From Vreelandella profundi (GTDB lineage Bacteria; Pseudomonadota; Gammaproteobacteria; Pseudomonadales; Halomonadaceae): a DNA stretch of 64,000 nt. The notes under the pieces were generated by a model. It saw nothing but the letters and a program-made list of their open reading frames with translations. It searched no databases and was not told where the DNA came from. A program made the position numbers and the translations under genes. The stretch's first letter is position 1; each line of letters starts with the position of its first letter. The stretch is taken from positions 124,001 through 188,000 of the forward strand of contig NZ_CP077941.1 in assembly GCF_019722725.1 (NCBI RefSeq), in the 5' to 3' direction. Below are positions 3,922 through 18,103 of this stretch, piece after piece.

Positions 3922-4896
3922 ATGGATGACTTTTCGCCCAATGATTTAAAAACCATTCTTCATTCCAAGCGTGCAAATCTCTACTACTTGCAGCACTGCC
4001 GCGTGTTGGTGAATGGTGGCCGAGTGGAGTACGTCACCGATGAGGGTAGCAAGTCACGCTACTGGAACATCCCTATTGCCAACACCACTTCGATACTTTT
4101 GGGCACCGGCACTTCTATCACTCAGGCAGCCATGCGCGAACTGGCGAAGGCAGGTGTGTTAGTCGGGTTTTGTGGCGGTGGCGGTACGCCGCTCTTTGCG
4201 GCTAATGAAGTCGATGTTGATGTCGCTTGGCTGACCCCGCAAAGCGAATACCGTCCTACAGAGTATCTCCAATATTGGGTGCACTTTTGGTTTGATGATG
4301 CAAAGCGTCTGGATGCAGCCCGTGCATTCCAGCAAGCGCGCCTGACTCGCATTGAAGCCCTGTGGACAAGCCGTGTAATGAAAGATGCAGGCTTTAGCAT
4401 TTCAACGGATCAACTGCATAGCGCACTTGCCCACCACCGTGAAGCGATCAAGAAAGCACCTAGTACCGTTGACCTGCTCACCCTGGAAGCGCGCTTAACC
4501 AAAATGCTGTTTAAGCTGGCGGTGAATGCTACCGAGTATGGCGACTTCACCCGCGCCAAGCGCGGAACAGGCGTGGATCCCGCCAACCGCTTTCTCGATC
4601 ACGGCAACTACCTCGCCTACGGGTTGGCCGCCACGGCCACCTGGGTGCTGGGCATTCCTCACGGCCTGGCCGTACTTCACGGCAAAACTCGTCGAGGCGG
4701 GCTAGTCTTTGATGTCGCCGACTTAGTCAAAGACGCAGTGATTTTACCCCAGGCATGTATTTCCGCCATGCGCGGCGATGAAGAGCAGGAGTTTCGCCAG
4801 GCCTGTATCGAGCGCCTGACCCGCACCGAATCCCTCGACTTCATGATCGATACACTCAAGGAAGTGGCTCAAGCGCTGGGGAGCGCAAAACAATGA
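3922..4896 (+). CDS. cas1: type I-F CRISPR-associated endonuclease Cas1
   Basis: Integrase of the spacer-acquisition complex; with the Cas2 domain of Cas2-3 it inserts new spacers at the leader end of the array. At 324 residues it has the usual type I-F length. The likely catalytic residues are E189 (in LEARLTKMLF), H253 (in VLHGKTRRGG) and D264/D267 (in VFDVADLVKD), which correspond in position to the E-H-D set of Pseudomonas aeruginosa Cas1. AGGAG at 3911-3915 with a 6-base spacer supports the start. It overlaps cas2-3 by ATGA. No defect is seen, so acquisition should be possible. Confidence 0.97.
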   Translation: MDDFSPNDLKTILHSKRANLYYLQHCRVLVNGGRVEYVTDEGSKSRYWNIPIANTTSILLGTGTSITQAAMRELAKAGVLVGFCGGGGTPLFAANEVDVDVAWLTPQSEYRPTEYLQYWVHFWFDDAKRLDAARAFQQARLTRIEALWTSRVMKDAGFSISTDQLHSALAHHREAIKKAPSTVDLLTLEARLTKMLFKLAVNATEYGDFTRAKRGTGVDPANRFLDHGNYLAYGLAATATWVLGIPHGLAVLHGKTRRGGLVFDVADLVKDAVILPQACISAMRGDEEQEFRQACIERLTRTESLDFMIDTLKEVAQALGSAKQ

Positions 4897-7800
4897 ATGT
4901 GCTGCTGATTTCCCAGTGCAATAAAAATGCGCTGAAAGAAACCCGCCGCATTCTAGACCAGTTTGCCGAGCGCCGCGGCGACCGCACCTGGCAAACGCCC
5001 ATCACTCAGGCCGGGCTGGATACACTCCGCAAACTGCTGCGTAAAACCGCCCGTAAAAACACCGCCGTGGCCTGCCACTGGATTCGTGGGCATGATCACA
5101 GCGAGCTGATGTGGGTGGTGGGGGATGCTGCGAAGTTCAATATCAATGGCGCTGTACCGACCAATACCACCGCCCGAGATATCCTGCGCCGTCGGGATGA
5201 AAACGACTGGCACAATGGTGAAGATATTCTTTTGCTCACCGCTATGGCTGCGTTACTGCACGACCTGGGAAAAGCCTGCGATGCCTTTCAACAGCGGCTT
5301 AAAGGCAAGCTAGAAGGGCGTAACTTATACCGCCATGAGTGGATATCGCTGCGCCTTTTCCAAGCGTTTGTAGGAAGTGATAACGACGCCACATGGTTGG
5401 CGCGACTCGCCGCAGGCAGCTATCACGATCAAGACTGGCTAGAGGGTTTAGAGCGTGACGGCATGGACACTCCTACTTCTGCAGTGTTTGGTCGTTTACC
5501 GCCGCTGGCTGCTGCGCTTGGTTGGCTAGTGCTTAGCCACCATCGGCTACCGCTAAAGCCGCCTGAAAAAGATGGTGAAACTGAGCGGCGCTGGGGGCGA
5601 GGAAAGTCGCCACTGCAGGCGGAGCAACTAGGCGGGCTGTTTGCTTCTATCCATGCTGAGTGGAACGAGATTCCCGAGACACAAGACCCTAAGCGGATCG
5701 CGCCTTACTGGCAGTTCAAGGGTGGATTGCCGGTTAGCACACCACGTTGGCGCGAGCGTGCCACAAAGCTTGCCACGCGGTTACAGGCGCGGCTGAAAAG
5801 CGATAGCCACTGGCTGGAAAGCCGCTACGTCATGCACTTAGCCCGGCTTAGCTTAATGCTCGCCGACCATCACTATTCAAGCCTAGAAGACTTACAGCAT
5901 CGTGTTCGCGGCGAGCCCAACTATCCGCTGATTGCCAACACCGTGCGTAAAACCGGTAAGCCTAATCAGCCGTTAGATGAGCATATTCTGGGTGTTGAAA
6001 AACATGCGGCCGCAGTTGCTCGTGCGCTGCCCAGCGTAGACAGCCACTTGCCCCGTCTAGCGCGCCATAAAGGCTTTCGTAAGCGTAGCAGTCACTCGCG
6101 TTTTCGCTGGCAGGATAAAGCCTTTGATCTGGCCCAGTCGCTAAGGGAACTCAGCCAACGCCAAGGCTTTTTTGGCATTAATATGGCCTCCACCGGCTGC
6201 GGTAAAACCCTAGCGAATGGGCGCATTATGTACGCGCTAGCCGACCCCTTGCAGGGCGCGCGCTTTAGCATTGCGCTAGGGTTGCGCACGCTAACGCTAC
6301 AAACTGGCCAAGCCCTCCGCGACCGTTTGCATTTGGGCGAAGATGAGCTCGCCGTACGTGTAGGTGGCAGCGCTAATAAAGCCCTGTTTGAGCACTACGA
6401 GCAAGAAGCTGAAGCCAGTGGCTCTGCGTCTAAACAGGCGCTGATAGAAGAAGATGCCCACGTGGTGTTTGACGGTAATTTTGATGCCCATCCGGTACTC
6501 CGCCGTTTGAGCGATGAACCGGGCACCCGCGCGCTGATAGCGGCCCCCATTCTGGTATGCACGGTTGATCACTTAGTGCCTGCCACGGAGAGCACACGAG
6601 GCGGACGACAAATTGTGCCCATGCTGCGCCTAATGAGCAGTGATTTGGTACTCGATGAAATAGACGATTTCGATATCAACGACCTGCCCGCGCTTACCCG
6701 GTTAGTCAATTGGGCCGGGCTATTAGGTTCACGAGTGCTGCTTTCCTCTGCCACCTTGCCGCCTGCGCTGGTGGAGGGTTTGTATGAAGCCTATCGCAGC
6801 GGTCGTGAAGCTTTTCAGCGCCATCGCGGCGAGCCAGGATTAGCGACAGATATCTGCTGCGCCTGGTTCGACGAACATGATCGTCAGCATGCAAACTGCG
6901 CTAGTAGCGAGACCTTCCAAACGGCTCATCACGCCTTTGCCAAGCGTCGGTTAGACCGCCTATCCAAAAGCCCAGTACGCCGCCGCGCAGATATTTTAGC
7001 GTTGCCACCGATGGGCAAACGTCCAGAAGAAATAAGGCCCGCCATTGCCACCCTGCTGCGTGAAAATGCGTTAGCACTCCACCAGCAGCATCACTGCGTT
7101 GACCCTCACTCAGGCAAGCGGATCAGTTTTGGCTTAATGCGAATGGCCAATATTGACCCCTTGGTTGATGTAGCCAGGGCGCTTTTTCAGCAGGGCGCCC
7201 CTGAAGGTGTGCGCATTCACCTCTGCGTTTACCACTCTCGCCACCCGCTGGTAATGCGCTCGGAGATTGAGCGCCGGCTAGATAAAACGCTACAACGGGC
7301 TGAGCCAGATAGGGTTTTTCAGCAGCCGGATATCCGCCACCTGCTGGATAGCAGCGAAGAAAGCGACCATCTGTTTATCGTTCTAGGATCACCGGTCACA
7401 GAAGTAGGCCGCGATCATGATTATGACTGGGCGATTGTTGAGCCATCTTCTATGCGCTCAATTATTCAGCTCGCGGGTAGAGTTCGCCGCCACCGCGAGC
7501 AGGGATGTGAATCGCCCAATATCTTACTGCTCGATACCAACCTCAAACACTTGGAGCAGTCTGGAAAGCCTGCCTTCCACAAGCCTGGCTTTGAAACAGA
7601 TATCAATTGGCGGTTAAGCAGCCACTCACTGAAGGATCTATTAAACGAAGAGGAGTACCAGGTCATCGATGCCCGCCCCCGCGTGCTGGCGCGAGACACG
7701 TTGCGCGCCAAAGAAAGTCTCGTCGATCTGGAGCACGCGCGGCTGCATCAGTTAATGATTGAGCAGCCCGCCGAGCCGTTAACCAAAAAAGATCTACGCC

Positions 7801-8237
7801 TAGGAAAAACCCCCAAACCACCGCCGCTTGGCGCTTATAGCTGGCATGTGATGCCGCAATTTCACTTAACCGGCGTGTTGATTCAGCGCGACCCATTTCG
7901 CAAGCAGCTCGAACCGGAAATAACCCTGGCGCTGCTGCCCGATGAAGGCGGTGAAACCTGGACGCTAAACCGTGTAGACGACGGCGCGAGACGTGGTGAA
8001 AAGCTCTATGTGCCGGTGGAAGAGAGTCTGCTGGTACGGGTAGACCTAGCCAAAGAGCGGGGCGAGCGGATTCAGACTTGGGGTGCCAGCGACTACTTAA
8101 CAGCCCTGGCGGACTTAGCAGAAGACCTGGATATCTCTCTTGATCGCGCCGCCCGTACCTTCGGCACGGTGACAGCCTCGGCTAGAAACCAGCGGTGGGG
8201 GTATCACCCGGTGTTGGGGTTTTGGCGGAGCCGCTAG
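4893..8237 (+). CDS. cas3: type I-F Cas2-Cas3 fusion (HD nuclease-helicase)
   Basis: A 1114-residue fusion that serves both adaptation (Cas2 part, about residues 1-90, MNVLLISQCNK) and interference (HD nuclease and superfamily 2 helicase). The HD motif is H123-D124 in ALLHDLGK. Walker A is STGCGKT at about residues 433-439, the Walker B box is LDEID at about 587-591, and motif III is SSATLPP near 617. The helicase motif VI region reads IIQLAGRVRRHR. All catalytic motifs are intact. It is coupled to cas1 by ATGA. Its stop codon abuts the stop codon of the convergent hicB with no base between, so the two transcripts must run into each other unless one is stopped inside a gene. Confidence 0.97.
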   Translation: MNVLLISQCNKNALKETRRILDQFAERRGDRTWQTPITQAGLDTLRKLLRKTARKNTAVACHWIRGHDHSELMWVVGDAAKFNINGAVPTNTTARDILRRRDENDWHNGEDILLLTAMAALLHDLGKACDAFQQRLKGKLEGRNLYRHEWISLRLFQAFVGSDNDATWLARLAAGSYHDQDWLEGLERDGMDTPTSAVFGRLPPLAAALGWLVLSHHRLPLKPPEKDGETERRWGRGKSPLQAEQLGGLFASIHAEWNEIPETQDPKRIAPYWQFKGGLPVSTPRWRERATKLATRLQARLKSDSHWLESRYVMHLARLSLMLADHHYSSLEDLQHRVRGEPNYPLIANTVRKTGKPNQPLDEHILGVEKHAAAVARALPSVDSHLPRLARHKGFRKRSSHSRFRWQDKAFDLAQSLRELSQRQGFFGINMASTGCGKTLANGRIMYALADPLQGARFSIALGLRTLTLQTGQALRDRLHLGEDELAVRVGGSANKALFEHYEQEAEASGSASKQALIEEDAHVVFDGNFDAHPVLRRLSDEPGTRALIAAPILVCTVDHLVPATESTRGGRQIVPMLRLMSSDLVLDEIDDFDINDLPALTRLVNWAGLLGSRVLLSSATLPPALVEGLYEAYRSGREAFQRHRGEPGLATDICCAWFDEHDRQHANCASSETFQTAHHAFAKRRLDRLSKSPVRRRADILALPPMGKRPEEIRPAIATLLRENALALHQQHHCVDPHSGKRISFGLMRMANIDPLVDVARALFQQGAPEGVRIHLCVYHSRHPLVMRSEIERRLDKTLQRAEPDRVFQQPDIRHLLDSSEESDHLFIVLGSPVTEVGRDHDYDWAIVEPSSMRSIIQLAGRVRRHREQGCESPNILLLDTNLKHLEQSGKPAFHKPGFETDINWRLSSHSLKDLLNEEEYQVIDARPRVLARDTLRAKESLVDLEHARLHQLMIEQPAEPLTKKDLRLGKTPKPPPLGAYSWHVMPQFHLTGVLIQRDPFRKQLEPEITLALLPDEGGETWTLNRVDDGARRGEKLYVPVEESLLVRVDLAKERGERIQTWGASDYLTALADLAEDLDISLDRAARTFGTVTASARNQRWGYHPVLGFWRSR

Positions 8238-8567
8238 CTATACGTTTGCGAGCCGATCACTGACTAAGCGGTTGAGGCTGATATTTTCTTCTGCTGCCTT
8301 AATCGCAAGCTCGCGGTGTTTTTCTGGGGGAATACGCACATTAAAACGGCCAGAATAGTGGCGTTCAGAAAGTGGGAGCGGGGGTGTTTCTCCTTCAGCT
8401 TCCATGTCTGCCACCACGTCGGAAACTAGGGAAAGAATACCTTCCAGCGCTTCTTGGTGAGTATCTGCAAGCCAAGAGAGGCTGGGTAGTTCGGTGCATA
8501 AACCAACGAATTGGTCATCTTCTTCTGACCAGCGTATGCGGTACGTGTAATGGGTATGGTTCACCAT
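8238..8567 (-). CDS. hicB: HicB-family antitoxin
   Basis: Antitoxin of a HicAB module, 109 residues. The N-terminal part (TYRIRWSEEDDQFVGLCTEL, then a segment with HQEALEGI) is the degenerate RNase-H-like HicB fold, and the C-terminal part (GRFNVRIPPEKH, then SLNRLVSDRL) is a ribbon-helix-helix DNA-binding domain like those of HicB repressors. I chose ATG 8567 because GGGAG precedes it; a longer frame reaching 8744 overlaps hicA and has no better start. It follows hicA by 16 bases, so the toxin is encoded first, as is usual for hicAB. The module sits between cas2-3 and csy1 on the opposite strand, splitting what is normally one cas cluster. Confidence 0.88.
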   Translation of the reverse strand: MVNHTHYTYRIRWSEEDDQFVGLCTELPSLSWLADTHQEALEGILSLVSDVVADMEAEGETPPLPLSERHYSGRFNVRIPPEKHRELAIKAAEENISLNRLVSDRLANV

Positions 8568-8583
8568 GGTACTACTCCCATCG

Positions 8584-8835
8584 TCATGCTGATGACGACA
8601 ATTTATCAATGGCAGCGAGCGCTTGGCGTATCTGATAAGCCTTGGCCTCTCCATTCTTCCCCCGCTGAATATTAACGCGAGGGTCGCCTGGCCAGGGTGT
8701 TTTATACACACGATGGCTGGTTTTTTGCTGGCGAGGAGGGCCAAAGTAGTGATCGCATAAATAGGCCAATTCGTCGAAGCTCATGCTTTTGGGCTGTCGA
8801 CGTGCTTTATCCAGAAGCTTATCAAGCTTTGCCAT
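8584..8835 (-). CDS. hicA: HicA-family toxin (mRNA interferase)
   Basis: HicA toxins are small double-stranded-RNA-binding-fold ribonucleases that cleave mRNA when HicB is lost. This protein has 83 residues. The likely catalytic histidine is H41 in KTSHRVYKTP, which corresponds to the SHH/SHR motif of HicA, followed by RVNIQRGKNGEAKAYQIRQAL, matching the end of the family. I chose ATG 8835, preceded by GAGAG; a TTG 12 bases upstream is an alternative. The gene is first in the operon, and a palindrome lies 19 bases upstream. It diverges from the csy genes. Confidence 0.82.
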   Translation of the reverse strand: MAKLDKLLDKARRQPKSMSFDELAYLCDHYFGPPRQQKTSHRVYKTPWPGDPRVNIQRGKNGEAKAYQIRQALAAIDKLSSSA

Positions 8836-8853
8836 AAGCGCTCTCAAATAGTA

Positions 8854-8869
8854 GTACTAATAATAGTAC
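8854..8869. promoter_or_regulatory. palindromic operator upstream of hicA
   Basis: GTACTA-ATAA-TAGTAC is a perfect inverted repeat with 6-bp arms and a 4-bp centre, 19 bases upstream of the hicA start. HicB proteins with a ribbon-helix-helix domain repress their own operon at such sites, so autoregulation is a good inference. Confidence 0.65.
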
Positions 8870-8912
8870 CGTAGCTGGTGTGTGTCACGTTCTGTTGGCA
8901 GAAATAAGTTGC

Positions 8913-8983
8913 TCCTACTACCTGGTCGGCAGCAATAAATTACTAGAACACTTTCCTAAGCTGTCTTCGCAACAGAAAATTAG
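8913..8983 (+). ncRNA. candidate crRNA-like mini-array (pseudo-repeat, 15-nt pseudo-spacer, pseudo-repeat)
   Basis: Two segments can be laid on the 28-nt I-F repeat without gaps. Pseudo-repeat 1 (8913-8940) has GGCAGC at 8928-8933, identical to repeat positions 16-21, and a hairpin CTACC-TGGTC-GGCAG with four of five pairs. Pseudo-repeat 2 (8956-8983) has the hairpin CTGTC-TTCGC-AACAG, again with five-base arms, a five-base loop and four of five pairs, one of them a C-G to U-A exchange. This is the Csy4 substrate geometry. The 15 bases between (8941-8955) begin TACTAGAACACT, and TACTAGCACACT occurs at 9000-9011 in the probable csy promoter. The arrangement resembles CreA/CreR-type crRNA-like regulators. 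Sequence identity to the true repeat is low (12 of 28 for pseudo-repeat 1), so this remains a candidate. Confidence 0.45.
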
Positions 8984-8999
8984 TATAGAAGATAATTTC

Positions 9000-9023
9000 T
9001 ACTAGCACACTGGAAAATATAAG
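9000..9023 (+). promoter_or_regulatory. probable csy promoter core with match to the mini-array pseudo-spacer
   Basis: TATAAG at 9018-9023 is a fair -10 element for the csy operon, with a weak -35 (TTTCTA, 8996-9001). TACTAGCACACT at 9000-9011 lies between them and matches the start of the pseudo-spacer at 11 of 12 positions. The two bases before it are TC, one change from the canonical I-F PAM CC. A Csy complex bound here would block transcription. An ordinary repressor reading the direct repeat is the main alternative. Confidence 0.4.
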
Positions 9024-9108
9024 TAGAAGTTTAATTAAAATTCGAATAAATTGAGTGTAGTGAACTAAATCTATTGAGAGATTGAATAGACAAACACAAG
9101 GATAATTC

Positions 9109-10482
9109 ATGGCCATTACTCAGCAACTGGGTATCCGAAGTACCATTGAGCAGTTTCTAAAAGAGCGCTTTGATACCAAGGCGGAAAAGCTGCAGCCCGA
9201 CGATCCGAAATACCAAGCGCTAGTTGAACAATTTCAGTTCGATACTTGGATCAACGATGCGGCAAGGCGTGTAGGCCAGCTGCAAGTGGTTACCCACTCA
9301 CTAAAACCTATTCACCCTGATGCTAAAGGCTCCAGCCTTTATGCCCCGCCTGAATCGCTGAACAAACATAATCTTGTCGGCAGCCACACGCTATCTGCTA
9401 ATTTTGCGGGGGATGTTGTGGGGAACGCTGCAGCTTTGGATGTTTATAAATTTTTAAAGCTGACGTTTGAAGACAAATCACTGCTTGAACGTGCGCTAGA
9501 AAATGACTCTGAGCTTGCCAAAGCGTTAAGTGGTAAGCCCGAACAAGCTCAGGCGTGGATCAGCGCTTTTGCTGCTATTACCGAGCCACGTGGGGAACAT
9601 GCCTCACATACCCGCGGTAAACAACTTTATTGGTTAGTGGGTGATGATGCCGCAGACGTAGAAAATGAAGCCGAGAACTTCCGTCTGCTAGCCCCGCTCT
9701 ACGCAACCTCGCTGGCGCACCGCGTATTTCAAACTATTAACCATGACCGCTTTAGCGAAGAGGCCAAAGATGCCCGTAAAGCCAAGCGGGAAGGCAAGTA
9801 CGTGGAGCAGCCCGTGCATAGCTACCCCAATTTAGCTGTGCAGAAAATGGGTGGTACTAAGCCACAAAATATCTCGCAGTTGAATAGCGAACGCGGTGGC
9901 AATAACTATTTACTGGCTTCAATGCCTCCGAGCTGGAATGTTCGTGATACTCGGCCCCCTCTAAAAGTAGCATCGGTTTTTTCGGACCCAGGAGTATTTG
10001 GCAGCCGTTCAGAAGTACGCTCCCTGGTTAAAGACCTCAAGCAATTCCTTGAAAAAAATCCTACGTCAGACATGCACACACGCGATTTACGCGATGACTA
10101 TACCGCGATGCTAATGGATGAGCTGGCGCTGTTTGCGATGCAAATGCATAGCCTGCCTGCAGGTTGGAGCAGCGATGAAAAATGCGAATTGGTCTCCGAA
10201 GAAGCTTTCTGGCTAGATCCTGGCCGCGCCGTAGAAGATGTCGCTTTTCGCGAGGCGCGGAATAGCGTGGAGTGGTCAGAAGATATTCGCCACCGATTTG
10301 CTAACTGGCTGAATGCCGCGCTCGGTGGAAAGCTTCCCCTTGGTGATGTGGAGTTTCGCCACTGGAAGAAAACGCTGGCAAAAGATATGACGCATCAACG
10401 TTTGCTGGATCGTGACCGCCGCTGGATGGAAAGCTTAATGGAAGACTTAACCAACCTGCCAGGAGGTGATGACGATGAGTGA
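9109..10482 (+). CDS. csy1: type I-F Csy1 (Cas8f), large subunit
   Basis: Large subunit of the Csy surveillance complex; with Csy2 it holds the 5' handle of the crRNA and reads the PAM. The protein has 457 residues, near the family length (434 in P. aeruginosa). Conserved Csy1 stretches include KMGGTKPQNISQLNSERGG and LLASMPPSW. AAGGA at 9098-9102 supports the start. It is the first gene of csy1-csy2-csy3-csy4, which has its own promoter region because hicAB separates it from cas2-3. Confidence 0.97.
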   Translation: MAITQQLGIRSTIEQFLKERFDTKAEKLQPDDPKYQALVEQFQFDTWINDAARRVGQLQVVTHSLKPIHPDAKGSSLYAPPESLNKHNLVGSHTLSANFAGDVVGNAAALDVYKFLKLTFEDKSLLERALENDSELAKALSGKPEQAQAWISAFAAITEPRGEHASHTRGKQLYWLVGDDAADVENEAENFRLLAPLYATSLAHRVFQTINHDRFSEEAKDARKAKREGKYVEQPVHSYPNLAVQKMGGTKPQNISQLNSERGGNNYLLASMPPSWNVRDTRPPLKVASVFSDPGVFGSRSEVRSLVKDLKQFLEKNPTSDMHTRDLRDDYTAMLMDELALFAMQMHSLPAGWSSDEKCELVSEEAFWLDPGRAVEDVAFREARNSVEWSEDIRHRFANWLNAALGGKLPLGDVEFRHWKKTLAKDMTHQRLLDRDRRWMESLMEDLTNLPGGDDDE

Positions 10483-12490: not shown

Positions 12491-13060
12491 ATGGATCACT
12501 ATATTGATATTCGCCTAAGGCCAGACCCGGATTTTCCCGAACCAATGCTGATGGGCGCGCTTTACAACAAGCTGCATCGTGCGCTTTTCGACCTGGAAGC
12601 AAACGGTATTGGCGTAAGCTTTCCGCTATGCAAACACGGCGTTCGCGCCCGCACGTTGGGCGTTCACCTACGCTTGCACAGCACCCAAGCGAGCCTTGAG
12701 CAACTGATGGCGTCTAACTGGCTGGCCGGCATGCGCGATCACGTTAGCGTCAGCGACGTATTGGTGGTGCCTAACCACGCGAAGCACATCAACGTAGCGC
12801 GCAAGCAGTTCAATACGGGGAGCCTCAGTCGTGCAAAGCGCTATGCCAAGCGGCATGACATTTCTGAAGAAGCAGCGCGCCAAATCTACGCCAAGGTAGC
12901 TGAAAAGCGCATTGAGCTTCCCTTTGTGCAGATTAACAGCCGCTCTACGCACCAGCGTTTTGCTCTATTCATAGAGCATCGCAAGCCGCAGGAGGAGCCG
13001 GTTGCAGGGACGTTTAACCATTATGGATTAAGCAATAATGCCACCGTGCCCTGCTTTTGA
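12491..13060 (+). CDS. csy4: type I-F Csy4 (Cas6f) pre-crRNA endoribonuclease
   Basis: Endoribonuclease that cuts each repeat RNA at the base of its hairpin and stays bound to the crRNA 3' end. The 189-residue protein aligns along its whole length with P. aeruginosa Csy4 (MDHYIDIRLRPDPDFP start). The general-base histidine is H29 in NKLHRAL. The serine-rich segment NSRSTHQRFALF and the end YGLSNNATVP match the RNA-binding C-terminus. All key features are present, so the 28-nt repeats downstream should be processed. Confidence 0.97.
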   Translation: MDHYIDIRLRPDPDFPEPMLMGALYNKLHRALFDLEANGIGVSFPLCKHGVRARTLGVHLRLHSTQASLEQLMASNWLAGMRDHVSVSDVLVVPNHAKHINVARKQFNTGSLSRAKRYAKRHDISEEAARQIYAKVAEKRIELPFVQINSRSTHQRFALFIEHRKPQEEPVAGTFNHYGLSNNATVPCF

Positions 13061-13189: not shown

Positions 13190-16100
13190 GTTCGCTGCCG
13201 CCCAGGCAGCTCAGAAAAAGCCCAGCAACAAGAAAGCGGCCGCCCCACGGTTCGCTGCCGCCCAGGCAGCTCAGAAAAAAGCCCAGCGCGAAGCTGCTGA
13301 GAAGCGCAAGTTCGCTGCCGCCCAGGCAGCTCAGAAAATGCCATCGTGCGGCACACGCTTGCGCCCAGGGTTCGCTGCCGCCCAGGCAGCTCAGAAATGC
13401 TCATCGCCCCAGGCCCATGCATCGTTCACGTTCGCTGCCGCCCAGGCAGCTCAGAAAAGATATTTAATCAGCAATGGCTCGATCAGTGAGTTCGCTGCCG
13501 CCCAGGCAGCTCAGAAAAAAACGATAATGGGGTGCCTTTTGACACCGGTGTTCGCTGCCGCCCAGGCAGCTCAGAAAAAGAATCGACGAGAACACGTCAA
13601 CAATGCCGCGTTCGCTGCCGCCCAGGCAGCTCAGAAAAATTGGCGATAACGATCGTCGCCTAGCGCATCGTTCGCTGCCGCCCAGGCAGCTCAGAAATAG
13701 CGCATCCCATAAATCGCCCTTGCTTAGCTGTTCGCTGCCGCCCAGGCAGCTCAGAAAGTACGCCGCGACGCGTGGCGAGGATGACTATCGTTCGCTGCCG
13801 CCCAGGCAGCTCAGAAAGTAGACAGCTTTCGTACGATTCGCGTCGGGCGGTTCGCTGCCGCCCAGGCAGCTCAGAAAATTAAAAAGCCTCCCGCGCCTGT
13901 AGGGTTATCGTTCGCTGCCGCCCAGGCAGCTCAGAAAGTAGTGCTAATAGCGGATTCCAGCGCATAGCCGTTCGCTGCCGCCCAGGCAGCTCAGAAAGCC
14001 GTGATCAGCGGTACTGCAACGCCTTAACAGTTCGCTGCCGCCCAGGCAGCTCAGAAAGCTAGCCCCTGACTCTATGGAGAAGGTCATGAGTTCGCTGCCG
14101 CCCAGGCAGCTCAGAAATAAGAAAAAGGGTCGCCCATTATGCATCCATGGTTCGCTGCCGCCCAGGCAGCTCAGAAAAGATGACACTGACGACGAACGCA
14201 TCACTCGCGGTTCGCTGCCGCCCAGGCAGCTCAGAAAACATTGCCTGAGGCGCTAAACGCCGATTTAACGTTCGCTGCCGCCCAGGCAGCTCAGAAATCT
14301 AGCTGCCAGTCCCTCCGGGCTAGCATGTTGTTCGCTGCCGCGTAGGCAGCTCAGAAAATCTAAAAATGCATAAATACAATCAGTAAAGCGTTCGCTGCCG
14401 CGTAGGCAGCTCAGAAAAGCGGCATTGAGTGTAGCCATCGTGGGGAATCGTTCGCTGCCGCGTAGGCAGCTCAGAAATAATTTACTCTCATTAATACAAT
14501 ACATTTTAAGTTCGCTGCCGCGTAGGCAGCTCAGAAAAGCGAGATCATTTATTTAACGCTGCGCATGTAGTTCGCTGCCGCGTAGGCAGCTCAGAAAAGG
14601 TTAATCAGGGCGAAAAACTCAACGACCCCGTTCGCTGCCGCGTAGGCAGCTCAGAAAATGAGCGAAGAGCGCGCCTTCCGGGGTGTCTGGTTCGCTGCCG
14701 CGTAGGCAGCTCAGAAACAGTCGGTTTCTGTAGCCGGGTCGCTGTAATCGTTCGCTGCCGTGTAGGCAGCTCAGAAAATCAAGCTGGAAGCCGATCGGAA
14801 CCGAGCGCAGTTCGCTGCCGCGTAGGCAGCTCAGAAATCGACCGTATTCCTGGAACGATATGCATCCAGGTTCGCTGCCGCGTAGGCAGCTCAGAAAGCT
14901 AGCTGGCTGGTGTTTTTGCACTCAATGGGGTTCGCTGCCGCGTAGGCAGCTCAGAAAAAACAGGCACAGTAGCGATAGCTCCATAGCGAGTTCGCTGCCG
15001 CGTAGGCAGCTCAGAAAATACGCGAAAACCAACCGTTGCTGTGCTGCGTGTTCGCTGCCGCGTAGGCAGCTCAGAAATCTATTTGAAACACAGGAAGCCG
15101 CCGACCTGAGTTCGCTGCCGCGTAGGCAGCTCAGAAACGCATCCCCCATCAGCTGTAGCGATTCAACCAGTTCGCTGCCGCGTAGGCAGCTCAGAAAAAC
15201 ACGCTGTTAATCGTTATTTCACCAGCCAGGTTCGCTGCCGCGTAGGCAGCTCAGAAAATGATAGAGGCGGAGAAGATAGCTACCGCCCAGTTCGCTGCCG
15301 CGTAGGCAGCTCAGAAATTCCATATCAACTGGCACATGCGCGCTTCAAGGTTCGCTGCCGCGTAGGCAGCTCAGAAAGGCGGGGCCTTCTCAGTCTCATA
15401 CGCATAAACGTTCGCTGCCGCGTAGGCAGCTCAGAAAGGAGCACCCATTGGGGCTTCTATTGAGGGGCCGTTCGCTGCCGCGTAGGCAGCTCAGAAATCA
15501 CCGAAGATGAGGCATTCCTGCGTATTCACGTTCGCTGCCGCGTAGGCAGCTCAGAAATGCGCCGCTGCCCGCTGCTCATCCATCGCTGAGTTCGCTGCCG
15601 CGTAGGCAGCTCAGAAAAGATTCGCAAGCCAGCTATCGATGCTATTGCCGTTCGCTGCCGCGTAGGCAGCTCAGAAAAAACAGATCTTACCGCTGTTTAA
15701 ACCGCATACGTTCGCTGCCGCGTAGGCAGCTCAGAAAGTTGGGGTTTTCCGGCGTACTTCCGGGCGCTAGTTCGCTGCCGCGTAGGCAGCTCAGAAATAT
15801 TTGCGCTGGCTCAGCAGTTGACAGGTAAGGTTCGCTGCCGCGTAGGCAGCTCAGAAAATAAACGCGAGGCTTAACGTTGCCGCCAATGTGTTCGCTGCCG
15901 CGTAGGCAGCTCAGAAAAGCTACGCCGTCGCCCACACGGTTGTTAAAGAGTTCGCTGCCGCGTAGGCAGCTCAGAAAAAGGCAGCTCAGAAAAAGGCAGC
16001 TCGATGTAAGAGCCAGCTGACGCCGTTCGCTGCCGCGTAGGCAGCTCAGAAAAAAACAGAAACGGTAACGACAGCGATCACCATGTTCGCTGCCGCGTAG

Positions 16101-18091
16101 GCAGCTCAGAAACCTGGGAAGTCGAACTATGCGATGCGCGCGGGGTTCGCTGCCGCGTAGGCAGCTCAGAAAATGCTCAAAATGCACATAACATTGCAAC
16201 GGCGGTTCGCTGCCGCGTAGGCAGCTCAGAAAAACTAATACTATCCAGCGCCTCGATTGAAGCCGTTCGCTGCCGCGTAGGCAGCTCAGAAAATAACGCT
16301 CTCCTGTGTAATTCGTGATAGACGGTTCGCTGCCGCGTAGGCAGCTCAGAAAACGATAGCGCACCGCAATCCATACCACCGATGGTTCGCTGCCGCGTAG
16401 GCAGCTCAGAAACGAAGGATAACGGGAACCCTATCACCCACGTTGTTCGCTGCCGCGTAGGCAGCTCAGAAAGACCAGGAAAATCTCGACAAGCTGCTCA
16501 GCTTGTTCGCTGCCGCGTAGGCAGCTCAGAAATAGCCAACAACCGTAAGCCGTGGTCTGCCAGTGTTCGCTGCCGCGTAGGCAGCTCAGAAATAGCGCGC
16601 TGATTCTTGCGCGCCTTGGTTTTGTTCGCTGCCGCGTAGGCAGCTCAGAAAATACCAGAACATGCCGTTTATAGCGTTAAACAATTCGCTGCCGCGTAGG
16701 CAGCTCAGAAATTGTTGATTGGCTGCATACTCTGCGGCTTCAGGTTCGCTGCCGCGTAGGCAGCTCAGAAAGCTAACTTGTCAGGCCGGAACCCGCTCCA
16801 ATGGTTCGCTGCCGCGTAGGCAGCTCAGAAACTGATCCAAGTTGCGTCCGTGTAACGTTGTCGGTTCGCTGCCGCGTAGGCAGCTCAGAAACTGATCCAA
16901 GTTGCGTCCGTGTAACGTTGTCGGTTCGCTGCCGCGTAGGCAGCTCAGAAAGCGATAAAGCCGAGCTAGTAGCGCTGCGCCAGGTTCGCTGCCGCGTAGG
17001 CAGCTCAGAAAAACTCCACATCCCGTTATTGATTTTAAAGCCCGTTCGCTGCCGCGTAGGCAGCTCAGAAATGATATCAACGCAGCACTCAACACATCGA
17101 GCAGTTCGCTGCCGCGTAGGCAGCTCAGAAATCACCGACTCATCTATTCGGGTGCGAATAATTGTTCGCTGCCGCGTAGGCAGCTCAGAAAAAATTGATA
17201 TGGCTGGACATATTGTGGTTTGCGTTCGCTGCCGCGTAGGCAGCTCAGAAAACGTTAACCGCCTCCTGATGACGCTTTGAGCAGTTCGCTGCCGCGTAGG
17301 CAGCTCAGAAAAGAGGGCGAATAATGAAAATAACCCTAGAAACGTTCGCTGCCGCGTAGGCAGCTCAGAAAGGTTGGGACGACCTCACGCTAACGCACGA
17401 AGAGTTCGCTGCCGCGTAGGCAGCTCAGAAATGCTCGATGCGGCACTGCTGTTTGATGATGTCGTTCGCTGCCGCGTAGGCAGCTCAGAAAGCGATGGGC
17501 AGCGACCCGGTGCCGGATGTTGAGTTCGCTGCCGCGTAGGCAGCTCAGAAAGCGATGGGCAGCGACCCGGTGCCGGATGTTGAGTTCGCTGCCGCGTAGG
17601 CAGCTCAGAAAACGGTATGCGGCGCTTGATGCGACACCTGCACGTTCGCTGCCGCGTAGGCAGCTCAGAAAAAAACATATCGACATCAAAACCAGCATCA
17701 ACGGTTCGCTGCCGCGTAGGCAGCTCAGAAATCTTGCTCAAGCGCGGTGATGCGGCGGCGCAGGTTCGCTGCCGCGTAGGCAGCTCAGAAAGATGAGTGC
17801 GCAGCAGCAGGCGCTATGGGCCAGTTCGCTGCCGCGTAGGCAGCTCAGAAAGAGTCAGGCGGTACCTACCAGTATGTGGCTGAGTTCGCTGCCGCGTAGG
17901 CAGCTCAGAAAACCCATCTCGTTAAGCCCGAGGTGCTGCTCGTGTTCGCTGCCGCGTAGGCAGCTCAGAAAGTCACAACGCCCACCGGCGGTGTGTATCA
18001 GCTGTTCGCTGCCGCCCAGGCAGCTCAGAAAGCTGGCAGGTTCACTTGAGCGACGGCATCGGGGTTCGCTGCCGCCCAGGCAGCTCAGAGC
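13190..18091 (+). CRISPR. type I-F CRISPR array, 82 repeats and 81 spacers
   Basis: The 28-nt repeat reads GTTCGCTGCC, then a variable loop, then GGCAGCTCAGAAA, with the Csy4 hairpin CTGCC/GGCAG. Period is 60 (32-nt spacers) with two exceptions: a 47-nt spacer at 15978-16024 and a 31-nt spacer at 16593-16623. Two loop alleles exist: GCCCA in repeats 1-19 (13190-14270) and in the last two (18004, 18064), and GCGTA in nearly all between (one GTGTA at 14750). The repeat at 16684 starts with A. The last repeat (18064) ends AGC instead of AAA, which marks the leader-distal end. Two spacers are present in duplicate (after 16804 and 16864; after 17464 and 17524). The leader is on the csy4 side. Apparent long reading frames here are periodicity artefacts. 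Confidence 0.99.
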
Positions 18092-18103
18092 CAAACCACC
18101 CAC

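What the first reader, a model, noticed from the sequence alone, without database searches (positions are those of the whole stretch)
8913..9023. Candidate crRNA-like regulator upstream of the csy operon
Seen: two degenerate I-F repeats (8913-8940, 8956-8983) keep the exact Csy4 hairpin geometry (five-base arms, five-base loop, four of five pairs each, one pair compensated). They flank a 15-base pseudo-spacer starting TACTAGAACACT. The near-identical TACTAGCACACT lies at 9000-9011, in the probable csy promoter. The mismatch is at base 7 with the boundary used here, and would fall on base 6, the base not read in class 1 heteroduplexes, if the spacer begins one base later. Known: CreA/CreR-type crRNA-like RNAs in other CRISPR types repress cas or toxin promoters through short seed matches. 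Inference: Csy complex loaded with this RNA dampens its own operon. Against: low sequence identity to the repeat, PAM TC rather than CC. A 12-bp repeat read by a protein is the rival model.
Basis: partly seen in the sequence, partly recalled or inferred. Interest (0 to 1): 0.85.

Follow-up and report, generated by a model that had tools for sequence, protein, structure and literature searches.

The report
CRISPR RNA restraining its own operon
Beside its type I-F CRISPR genes this bacterium appears to carry a tiny, worn-down CRISPR unit, read from the strand opposite to the one first proposed, whose guide RNA fits the start switch of the CRISPR genes themselves, so the immune system probably turns itself down.

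Summary
The mini-CRISPR lies on the minus strand: psi-repeat 1 (8980-8953) is the best 28-base match to the CRISPR repeat in the window outside the array, the handle is CTTAGGAA, the guide AGTGTTCTAGTA. The site 9013-9000 then reads CC + AGTGTGCTAGTA: an I-F PAM, with the single mismatch at base 6. Both objections in the finding (PAM TC, mismatch at base 7) vanish. In the family, 36 of 77 examined Csy1 loci carry such a unit. The best target, sought without a PAM rule, has CC in 35 of 36; mismatches pile up at bases 6, 12, 18 (27, 26, 23 of 35) and are absent at 1-5 and 7. Guide and target change together. In 24 of 36 the target precedes a tiny toxin-like ORF (CreTA, known for I-F in Acinetobacter); in 12 of 36, the window included, it lies just before csy1 with no such ORF: a CreR, named for I-B, I-E and V-A in what I could read, not for I-F. 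Autorepression of csy by a Csy-CreR complex is the best explanation; no RNA or reporter data were available.

The parts
8953..8980 (-). psi-repeat 1: hairpin CTGTT-GCGAA-GACAG (8975-8961) and 5' handle CTTAGGAA (8960-8953)
   Evidence: 19 of 28 identity to the array repeat, 1 of 117,344 28-mers outside the array reaches it; handle and hairpin position shared with 36 of 77 family loci
8933..8952 (-). guide part (psi-spacer), AGTGTTCTAGTA then ATTTATTG, 20 nt to the next hairpin
   Evidence: bases 1-5 and 7-12 pair with the site at 9011-9000
8918..8932 (-). psi-repeat 2 hairpin CTGCC-GACCA-GGTAG (3' end of the predicted RNA)
   Evidence: 15 of 20 identity over 8937-8918; folds in the minus-strand RNA
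8918..8960 (-). predicted mature CreR RNA after Csy4 cuts, 43 nt
   Evidence: inferred from the hairpins and the known Csy4 cut after the stem (recalled); sequence
8982..8987 (-). candidate -10 box TATACT of creR
   Evidence: same place as in relatives: 18 of 36 have a 5-of-6 -10 box 4-14 nt before the hairpin on this strand, 3.3 expected from shuffles, 0 of 36 on the plus side
9012..9013 (-). PAM CC
   Evidence: CC in 35 of 36 relatives' best sites
9000..9011 (-). target AGTGTGCTAGTA in the csy1 promoter region, mismatch at base 6 only
9036..9041 (+). candidate -10 box TAAAAT of csy1, 22 bases beyond the PAM as in L080 and L086; no good -35
   Evidence: read by eye; the consensus scan found no plus-strand promoter in 8700-9200
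9109..10482 (+). csy1 (cas8f), first gene of the regulated operon
   Evidence: PF09611, E 6e-135
4893..8237 (+). cas2-3 of subtype I-F
   Evidence: PF21384 and others
12491..13060 (+). csy4 (cas6f), the RNase expected to cut out CreR
   Evidence: PF09618, E 1e-60
8238..8567 (-). hicB-like antitoxin gene
   Evidence: PF05534, E 1e-15
8584..8835 (-). hicA-like gene downstream of creR on the same strand
   Evidence: named by position and an SHRxY motif (recalled); no Pfam or NCBIfam family
13193..18100 (+). main I-F CRISPR array, repeat GTTCGCTGCCGC(CC/GT)AGGCAGCTCAGAAA, period 60 (right end approximate)

Best explanation
The stretch is a creR gene of subtype I-F. From a minus-strand promoter (-10 at 8987-8982) a short RNA with two degenerate repeats is made; Csy4 cuts it after each hairpin, giving a 43-nt crRNA-like RNA (8960 to 8918). 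Csy1-3 load it and are led to CC + AGTGTGCTAGTA (9013-9000), where only about 11 base pairs form: enough to bind and block the csy1 promoter, too few for Cas3 cutting. So the csy operon is held down by its own product, and is released when ordinary crRNAs or anti-CRISPR proteins take the Csy proteins away. Shown here by sequence: repeats, handle, PAM, seed match, position, co-variation with relatives, lack of a CreT ORF. Inferred: transcription, processing, loading, repression, release.
For: psi-repeat 1 best repeat match outside the array. Family: 36 of 77 loci with two hairpins and handle; score 32 or more in 0 of 2,310 shuffles (cut-off set after seeing the loci). Unconstrained best target has CC in 35 of 36 and mismatches at 6, 12, 18 in 27, 26, 23 of 35 against 0-8 of 35 at the other bases up to 17. 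Own seed 9-10 of 10 in 36 of 36; foreign loci reach 9 or more in 30 of 1,260 comparisons; window 10 of 10 against at most 7. Stem covariation in psi-repeat 1: 173 of 180 standard pairs, shuffles at most 159. Minus-strand -10 boxes. No mini-ORF with ribosome site between target and csy1 in the window. A search rule of hairpins, handle and target finds 13 of 43 loci of the order outside the family and 0 of 600 shuffles. I-F CreA in the same cas3-csy1 gap, divergent from its target gene, CC PAM, mismatch at bases 6, 11, 18, is proven in Acinetobacter (PMC10097628, sections 6, 9, 15 read).
Against: No transcript or reporter data. The window's copy pairs over 12 bases only, the fewest of the 36, and its 20-base match is not significant by itself (p 0.72). 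Its csy1 -35 box is poor and the promoter scan finds none on +. The psi-repeat 1 hairpin is not in the minimum-energy fold of the 69-nt RNA. The module could be decaying.
Confidence: 0.8

Rival explanations
1. A relic: a CreTA or CreR unit that has lost function and is decaying in this genome, while those of relatives work.
For: Shortest pairing of the 36, handle one base off CTTAGAAA, wobble pairs in both stems, poor -35.
Against: The seed is intact at every read base with the right PAM (10 of 10), although guide and target letters differ wholly from those of the nearest hicBA-bearing relatives, so both have changed and still match.
Confidence: 0.13
2. A CreTA unit whose toxin RNA was missed, the target repressing a toxin rather than csy1.
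For: 24 of 36 family arrays have a mini-ORF after the target, and I-F CreTA is proven in Acinetobacter (PMC10097628).
Against: 97 bases separate target and csy1 start here, with no mini-ORF that has a ribosome site and no terminator; CreTA loci have about 240-280 bases there.
Confidence: 0.04
3. A 12-bp direct repeat read by a DNA-binding protein such as HicB; hairpins are chance.
For: Two near-identical 12-mers; the hicA side has TAGTAGTACTA palindromes.
Against: In L005, L006 and L014, whose HicB is 96-99% identical, the repeated words are different, yet each fits its own CC site with mismatch at base 6.
Confidence: 0.02
4. The plus-strand crRNA-like RNA of the first reader.
For: Hairpins are near-palindromic, so plus-strand arms look similar.
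Against: Plus-strand identity to the repeat 11-14 of 28, no CC PAM, 0 of 36 plus-side -10 boxes at 5 of 6, no handle.
Confidence: 0.01

Closest known systems
CreR, cas-regulating RNA (reported for I-B, I-E, V-A; original paper not held, seen through passages of PMC13131331, PMC12737573, PMC12948488)
   Same: Mini-CRISPR outside the array, limited complementarity to the promoter of its own cas operon, no toxin.
   Different: Subtype I-F, two degenerate psi-repeats divergent from csy1 in the cas3-csy1 gap, next to hicBA in 4 loci; function untested here.
I-F CreTA of Acinetobacter WCHA45 (PMC10097628)
   Same: Same gap between cas3 and csy1, two psi-repeats with Csy4-type hairpins, guide divergent from its target gene, CC PAM, unpaired base 6.
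   Different: Acinetobacter CreA pairs 17 of 20 bases and represses a toxin RNA; the window's pairs 11 of 12 and faces csy1 with no CreT ORF.
tRNA-sequestering CreT (H. hubeiense; PMC8501985, abstract read)
   Same: 24 relatives carry a short ORF at this place with tandem rare-type codons such as AGA AGA or ATA ATA.
   Different: Absent from the window.
CrePA, CRISPR-repressed protein toxin (PMC12737573 section 10 read)
   Same: crRNA-like RNA in a cas locus holding a gene down; a hicA-like gene is beside creR here.
   Different: No seed match of more than 5 of 10 at a CC site in the 300 bases on the hicBA side; CreP has a KilA-N domain.

Membership tests
CreR (cas-regulating crRNA-like RNA) | repeat-like elements outside the array that can be processed by the system's own Cas6 | tested here: met
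   two hairpins with Csy4 geometry and I-F handle, covarying in relatives; processing itself not tested
CreR (cas-regulating crRNA-like RNA) | limited complementarity to the promoter of its own cas operon next to a proper PAM | tested here: met
   CC PAM, 11 of 12 bases, 97 bases before csy1
CreR (cas-regulating crRNA-like RNA) | no toxin gene between target and cas genes | tested here: met
   no mini-ORF with ribosome site in the window's 97 bases
CreR (cas-regulating crRNA-like RNA) | represses cas expression with the effector, relieved by crRNA or Acr | not testable with these tools
   needs RNA and reporter work
I-F CreTA | creA-like guide with CC-flanked partial target in the cas3-csy1 gap | tested here: met
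   PMC10097628
I-F CreTA | creT: mini-ORF with strong ribosome site downstream of the target | tested here: not met
   absent in the window; present by eye in 24 of 36 relatives with arrays
CrePA | guide target in the promoter of a protein toxin | tested here: not met
   best seed match on the hicBA side 5 of 10; read-through from creR into hicA not tested
ordinary I-F CRISPR array | near-identical 28-nt repeats and 32-nt spacers | tested here: not met
   19 and 16 of 28 identity, 20 nt between handle and second hairpin

The most novel reading that the evidence does not exclude
The cas3-csy1 gap of I-F loci is a swap site for guardian modules (CreTA, CreR, CreR with hicBA, small-protein units). 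In the hicBA form, creR has no terminator, runs into hicA on the same strand, and its guide covers creR's own -35 region as well as the csy1 promoter. Csy would then hold down csy, creR and a read-through supply of HicA; loss or inhibition of Csy would raise Cas and toxin together, a CRISPR-guarding toxin switch without a CreT.
Probability: 0.12. Interest if true: 0.8.

Novelty: new member of a known kind. Interest (0 to 1): 0.66.

Why it matters
It would extend RNA-guided autorepression of Cas effectors to subtype I-F, the subtype of Pseudomonas and Acinetobacter work and of many anti-CRISPRs, and it gives a test bed: within one genus CreR, CreTA and no unit alternate at the same gap. The set also gives a natural footprint of I-F pairing: over 35 loci bases 6, 12 and 18 mismatch in 66-77%, close to the 75% expected of free drift, while bases 1-5 and 7 never do, which is strong comparative evidence that these sites are read by a Csy complex.

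Tried and rejected
Plus-strand reading: I first tested the finding's own orientation over 36 loci; matches were present but ended at the far side of the guide and were followed by GG, which showed that the strand was wrong. Wobble pairs as a strand test: right for the window's two stems, but 7 against 5 over all loci, so not used as general evidence. A second target at the hicBA promoter: best 5 of 10. Off-targets: CCAGTGTNCTAG occurs twice in the whole genome, about 1.7 expected by my arithmetic; the second place was not followed. RNA folding: weak support only (z -1.59 on minus, -0.12 on plus; the psi-repeat 1 hairpin is not in the minimum-energy fold). Family tree: labels are scattered (CreR needs 9 changes for 11 rows, unit against no unit 20 changes among 71 rows); the first tree run carried L050 under the wrong label. 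I cannot tell gain from loss or exchange.

Rows dropped: of 78 family genomes with Csy1 I examined one locus each in 77; G242 and the second match in G222 were left out. In the tree 71 of 77 loci were used (complete Csy1 only). Of 45 order-level genomes outside the family with Csy1 I examined 43; G635 and G308 were left out. L056 has two imperfect hairpins and was not counted. Unconstrained 20-base targets: 33 of 36 at p 0.03 or less; L001 (0.72), L005 (0.12), L014 (0.52) not. Classes CreTA and CreR were assigned by eye; L066 has the ribosome site, start and AGA AGA but no near stop codon.

Full report
Setting. The window lies in a 3.64 Mb genome (G000) whose close Csy1 relatives are Vreelandella/Halomonas. 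The order is cas1, cas2-3 (4893-8237), hicB-like and hicA-like genes on minus (8238-8835), the finding, csy1 (9109), csy2, csy3, csy4 (to 13060), and an array of 60-base period. The HicB is a Pfam match; the HicA-like protein matches no family, so its name rests on place and a recalled motif.

The observation. The words and hairpin shapes are at the stated places. The strand is wrong. In relatives the eight bases left of the right hairpin are mostly TTTCT(A/G)AG, whose reverse complement CT(C/T)AGAAA is the I-F 5' handle; the window's own array repeat ends CTCAGAAA. Read on minus, psi-repeat 1 (8980-8953) matches the repeat at 19 of 28, the highest of 117,344 28-mers outside the array; the finding's plus-strand 28-mers reach 11-14. 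On minus the guide is AGTGTTCTAGTA and the site is CC + AGTGTGCTAGTA (9013-9000): the I-F PAM, with the one mismatch at base 6.

Relatives. Csy1 is found in 27 of 82 genomes of the genus and 78 of 275 of the family. I examined one locus in each of 77 of those 78. Of the 77, 36 have a pair of hairpins with the handle motif; the score cut-off was set after seeing the loci, and 0 of 2,310 shuffled upstream regions reach it. I then took the first 20 guide bases of each unit, read on minus, and looked for the best match on either strand downstream, without a PAM rule. In 35 of 36 the best site is preceded by CC (one of them, L050, on the other strand). Mismatches by base over those 35: bases 1-5 and 7, 0; base 6, 27; 8, 5; 9, 3; 10, 1; 11, 2; 12, 26; 13, 2; 14, 8; 15-17, 6 each; 18, 23; 19, 11; 20, 20. 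That every sixth base is unread is the known mark of class 1 effectors (recalled; Acinetobacter CreA leaves 6, 11 and 18 unpaired, PMC10097628 section 9). The loci are related, so they are not 35 independent events. The exception is the window itself: its pairing stops after base 12, and its unconstrained best site is another one (12 of 20, p 0.72). L005 (p 0.12) and L014 (p 0.52) are not significant on that test either, though their best sites have CC.

Test on the window. With the rule taken from the family (CC, bases 1-5 and 7-11), the window's guide has 10 of 10 at 9013-9000, the only such place in 64 kb, and 0 of 200,000 shuffles of the downstream region have one. Over the 36 units, own seeds score 10 of 10 in 25 and 9 of 10 in 11, while seeds tried on other loci reach 9 or more in 30 of 1,260 comparisons, chiefly near relatives; the window's guide scores at most 7 elsewhere. 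The hicA-like proteins of L001, L005, L006 and L014 are 98-100% identical, yet guide and target words differ wholly among L001, L014 and the L005/L006 pair and still fit.

RNA signs. In psi-repeat 1, 13 different stems occur among 36, with compensated changes at four of five pairs; 173 of 180 cells pair, shuffles at most 159. Psi-repeat 2 hardly varies (179 of 180 cells, shuffles reach 179), so it says little. On minus, 18 of 36 units have a -10 box of 5 of 6 just before the hairpin, 3.3 expected from shuffles, against 0 of 36 on the plus side; the window has TATACT at 8987-8982. Folding gives weak support and does not show the psi-repeat 1 hairpin in the minimum-energy form.

What the target controls. 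By eye, 24 of 36 units have after the target a ribosome site, a short ORF with tandem codons such as AGA AGA, AGG AGG or ATA ATA and a terminator-like hairpin, some 240-280 bases before csy1 (L066 lacks the near stop): the CreTA plan proven for I-F in Acinetobacter in the same gap (PMC10097628, sections 6, 9 and 15 read) with codons of the tRNA-sequestering CreT (PMC8501985, abstract). In 12 of 36 (L001, L005, L006, L014, L047, L052, L057, L067, L080, L086, L087, L092) there is no such ORF and the target is within about 140 bases of the csy1 start. There it sits next to a -35-like box (L005, L006, L080, L086, L087, L092), between -35- and -10-like boxes (L014) or on a -10-like box (L047, L052, L057, L067), by eye. 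In the window the PAM is followed 22 bases later by TAAAAT, as in L080 and L086, but the -35 is poor and the consensus scan found no plus-strand promoter.

Wider. A rule of hairpins, handle and target picks 36 of 77 family loci, 13 of 43 examined loci of the order outside the family, and 0 of 600 shuffles. Of the 13, by eye, six look CreR-like (L113, L115, L122, L126, L135, L136), two CreT-like (L104, L105) and five have a small protein ORF between target and csy1 (L111, L112, L117, L124, L125). On the Csy1 tree the kinds are scattered.

Mechanism. Best: Csy4-processed CreR on Csy1-3 binds the csy1 promoter with too little pairing for Cas3, so csy is held down and freed when crRNAs or anti-CRISPRs take the Csy proteins; this is the published logic of CreR (passages of PMC12737573, PMC13131331 and PMC12948488; the original paper is not held). 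All steps after the DNA are inferred.

Known or new. One passage names CreR in I-B, I-E and V-A (PMC13131331). My eight paper searches listed no I-F CreR: the two papers that hold CreR, I-F and CRISPR together are reviews, and I checked the I-F mention in each; it is not about an I-F CreR. Subscription papers and supplements were not readable, so the absence is only of what was searched. I file it as a new member of the CreR kind, in a subtype not reported there, by sequence; the defining repression is untested.

Noticed in passing
L002, L004, L007, L008, L011, L012, L013, L016, L017, L020 (upstream of csy1): 10 of the 20 closest genus loci carry an orphan ORF like the first 41-59 residues of HicB (53-61% identity), divergent from csy1, with no hicA and no mini-array; it may be a third kind of csy regulator.
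   Followed up: partly
L003, L009, L010, L015, L019, L025-L027, L045, L046, L048, L050, L059, L060, L065, L066, L068, L069, L072-L075, L081, L082: CreT-like mini-ORFs of several families (for example MIGYHVNIIF, VVGYCSVRRV, VARHHRKIIIL, VKYRRRRT) with tandem AGA/AGG, ATA or TTA codons between CreA target and csy1.
   Followed up: partly
L111, L112, L117, L124, L125 (between target and csy1): Small protein ORFs, some with a likely membrane stretch, stand where creT would be; possibly CRISPR-repressed protein toxins of a new kind (by eye).
   Followed up: no
window 8584-8835, minus: The hicA-like gene beside a Pfam HicB matches no Pfam or NCBIfam model even at loose thresholds.
   Followed up: partly
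window 8918 down to 8835, minus: No terminator was found between creR and hicA, so creR transcription may run into hicBA.
   Followed up: no
G000:C1:2202325-2202336 (L144): Second genomic CC + seed match to the window's CreR; about what chance gives.
   Followed up: no
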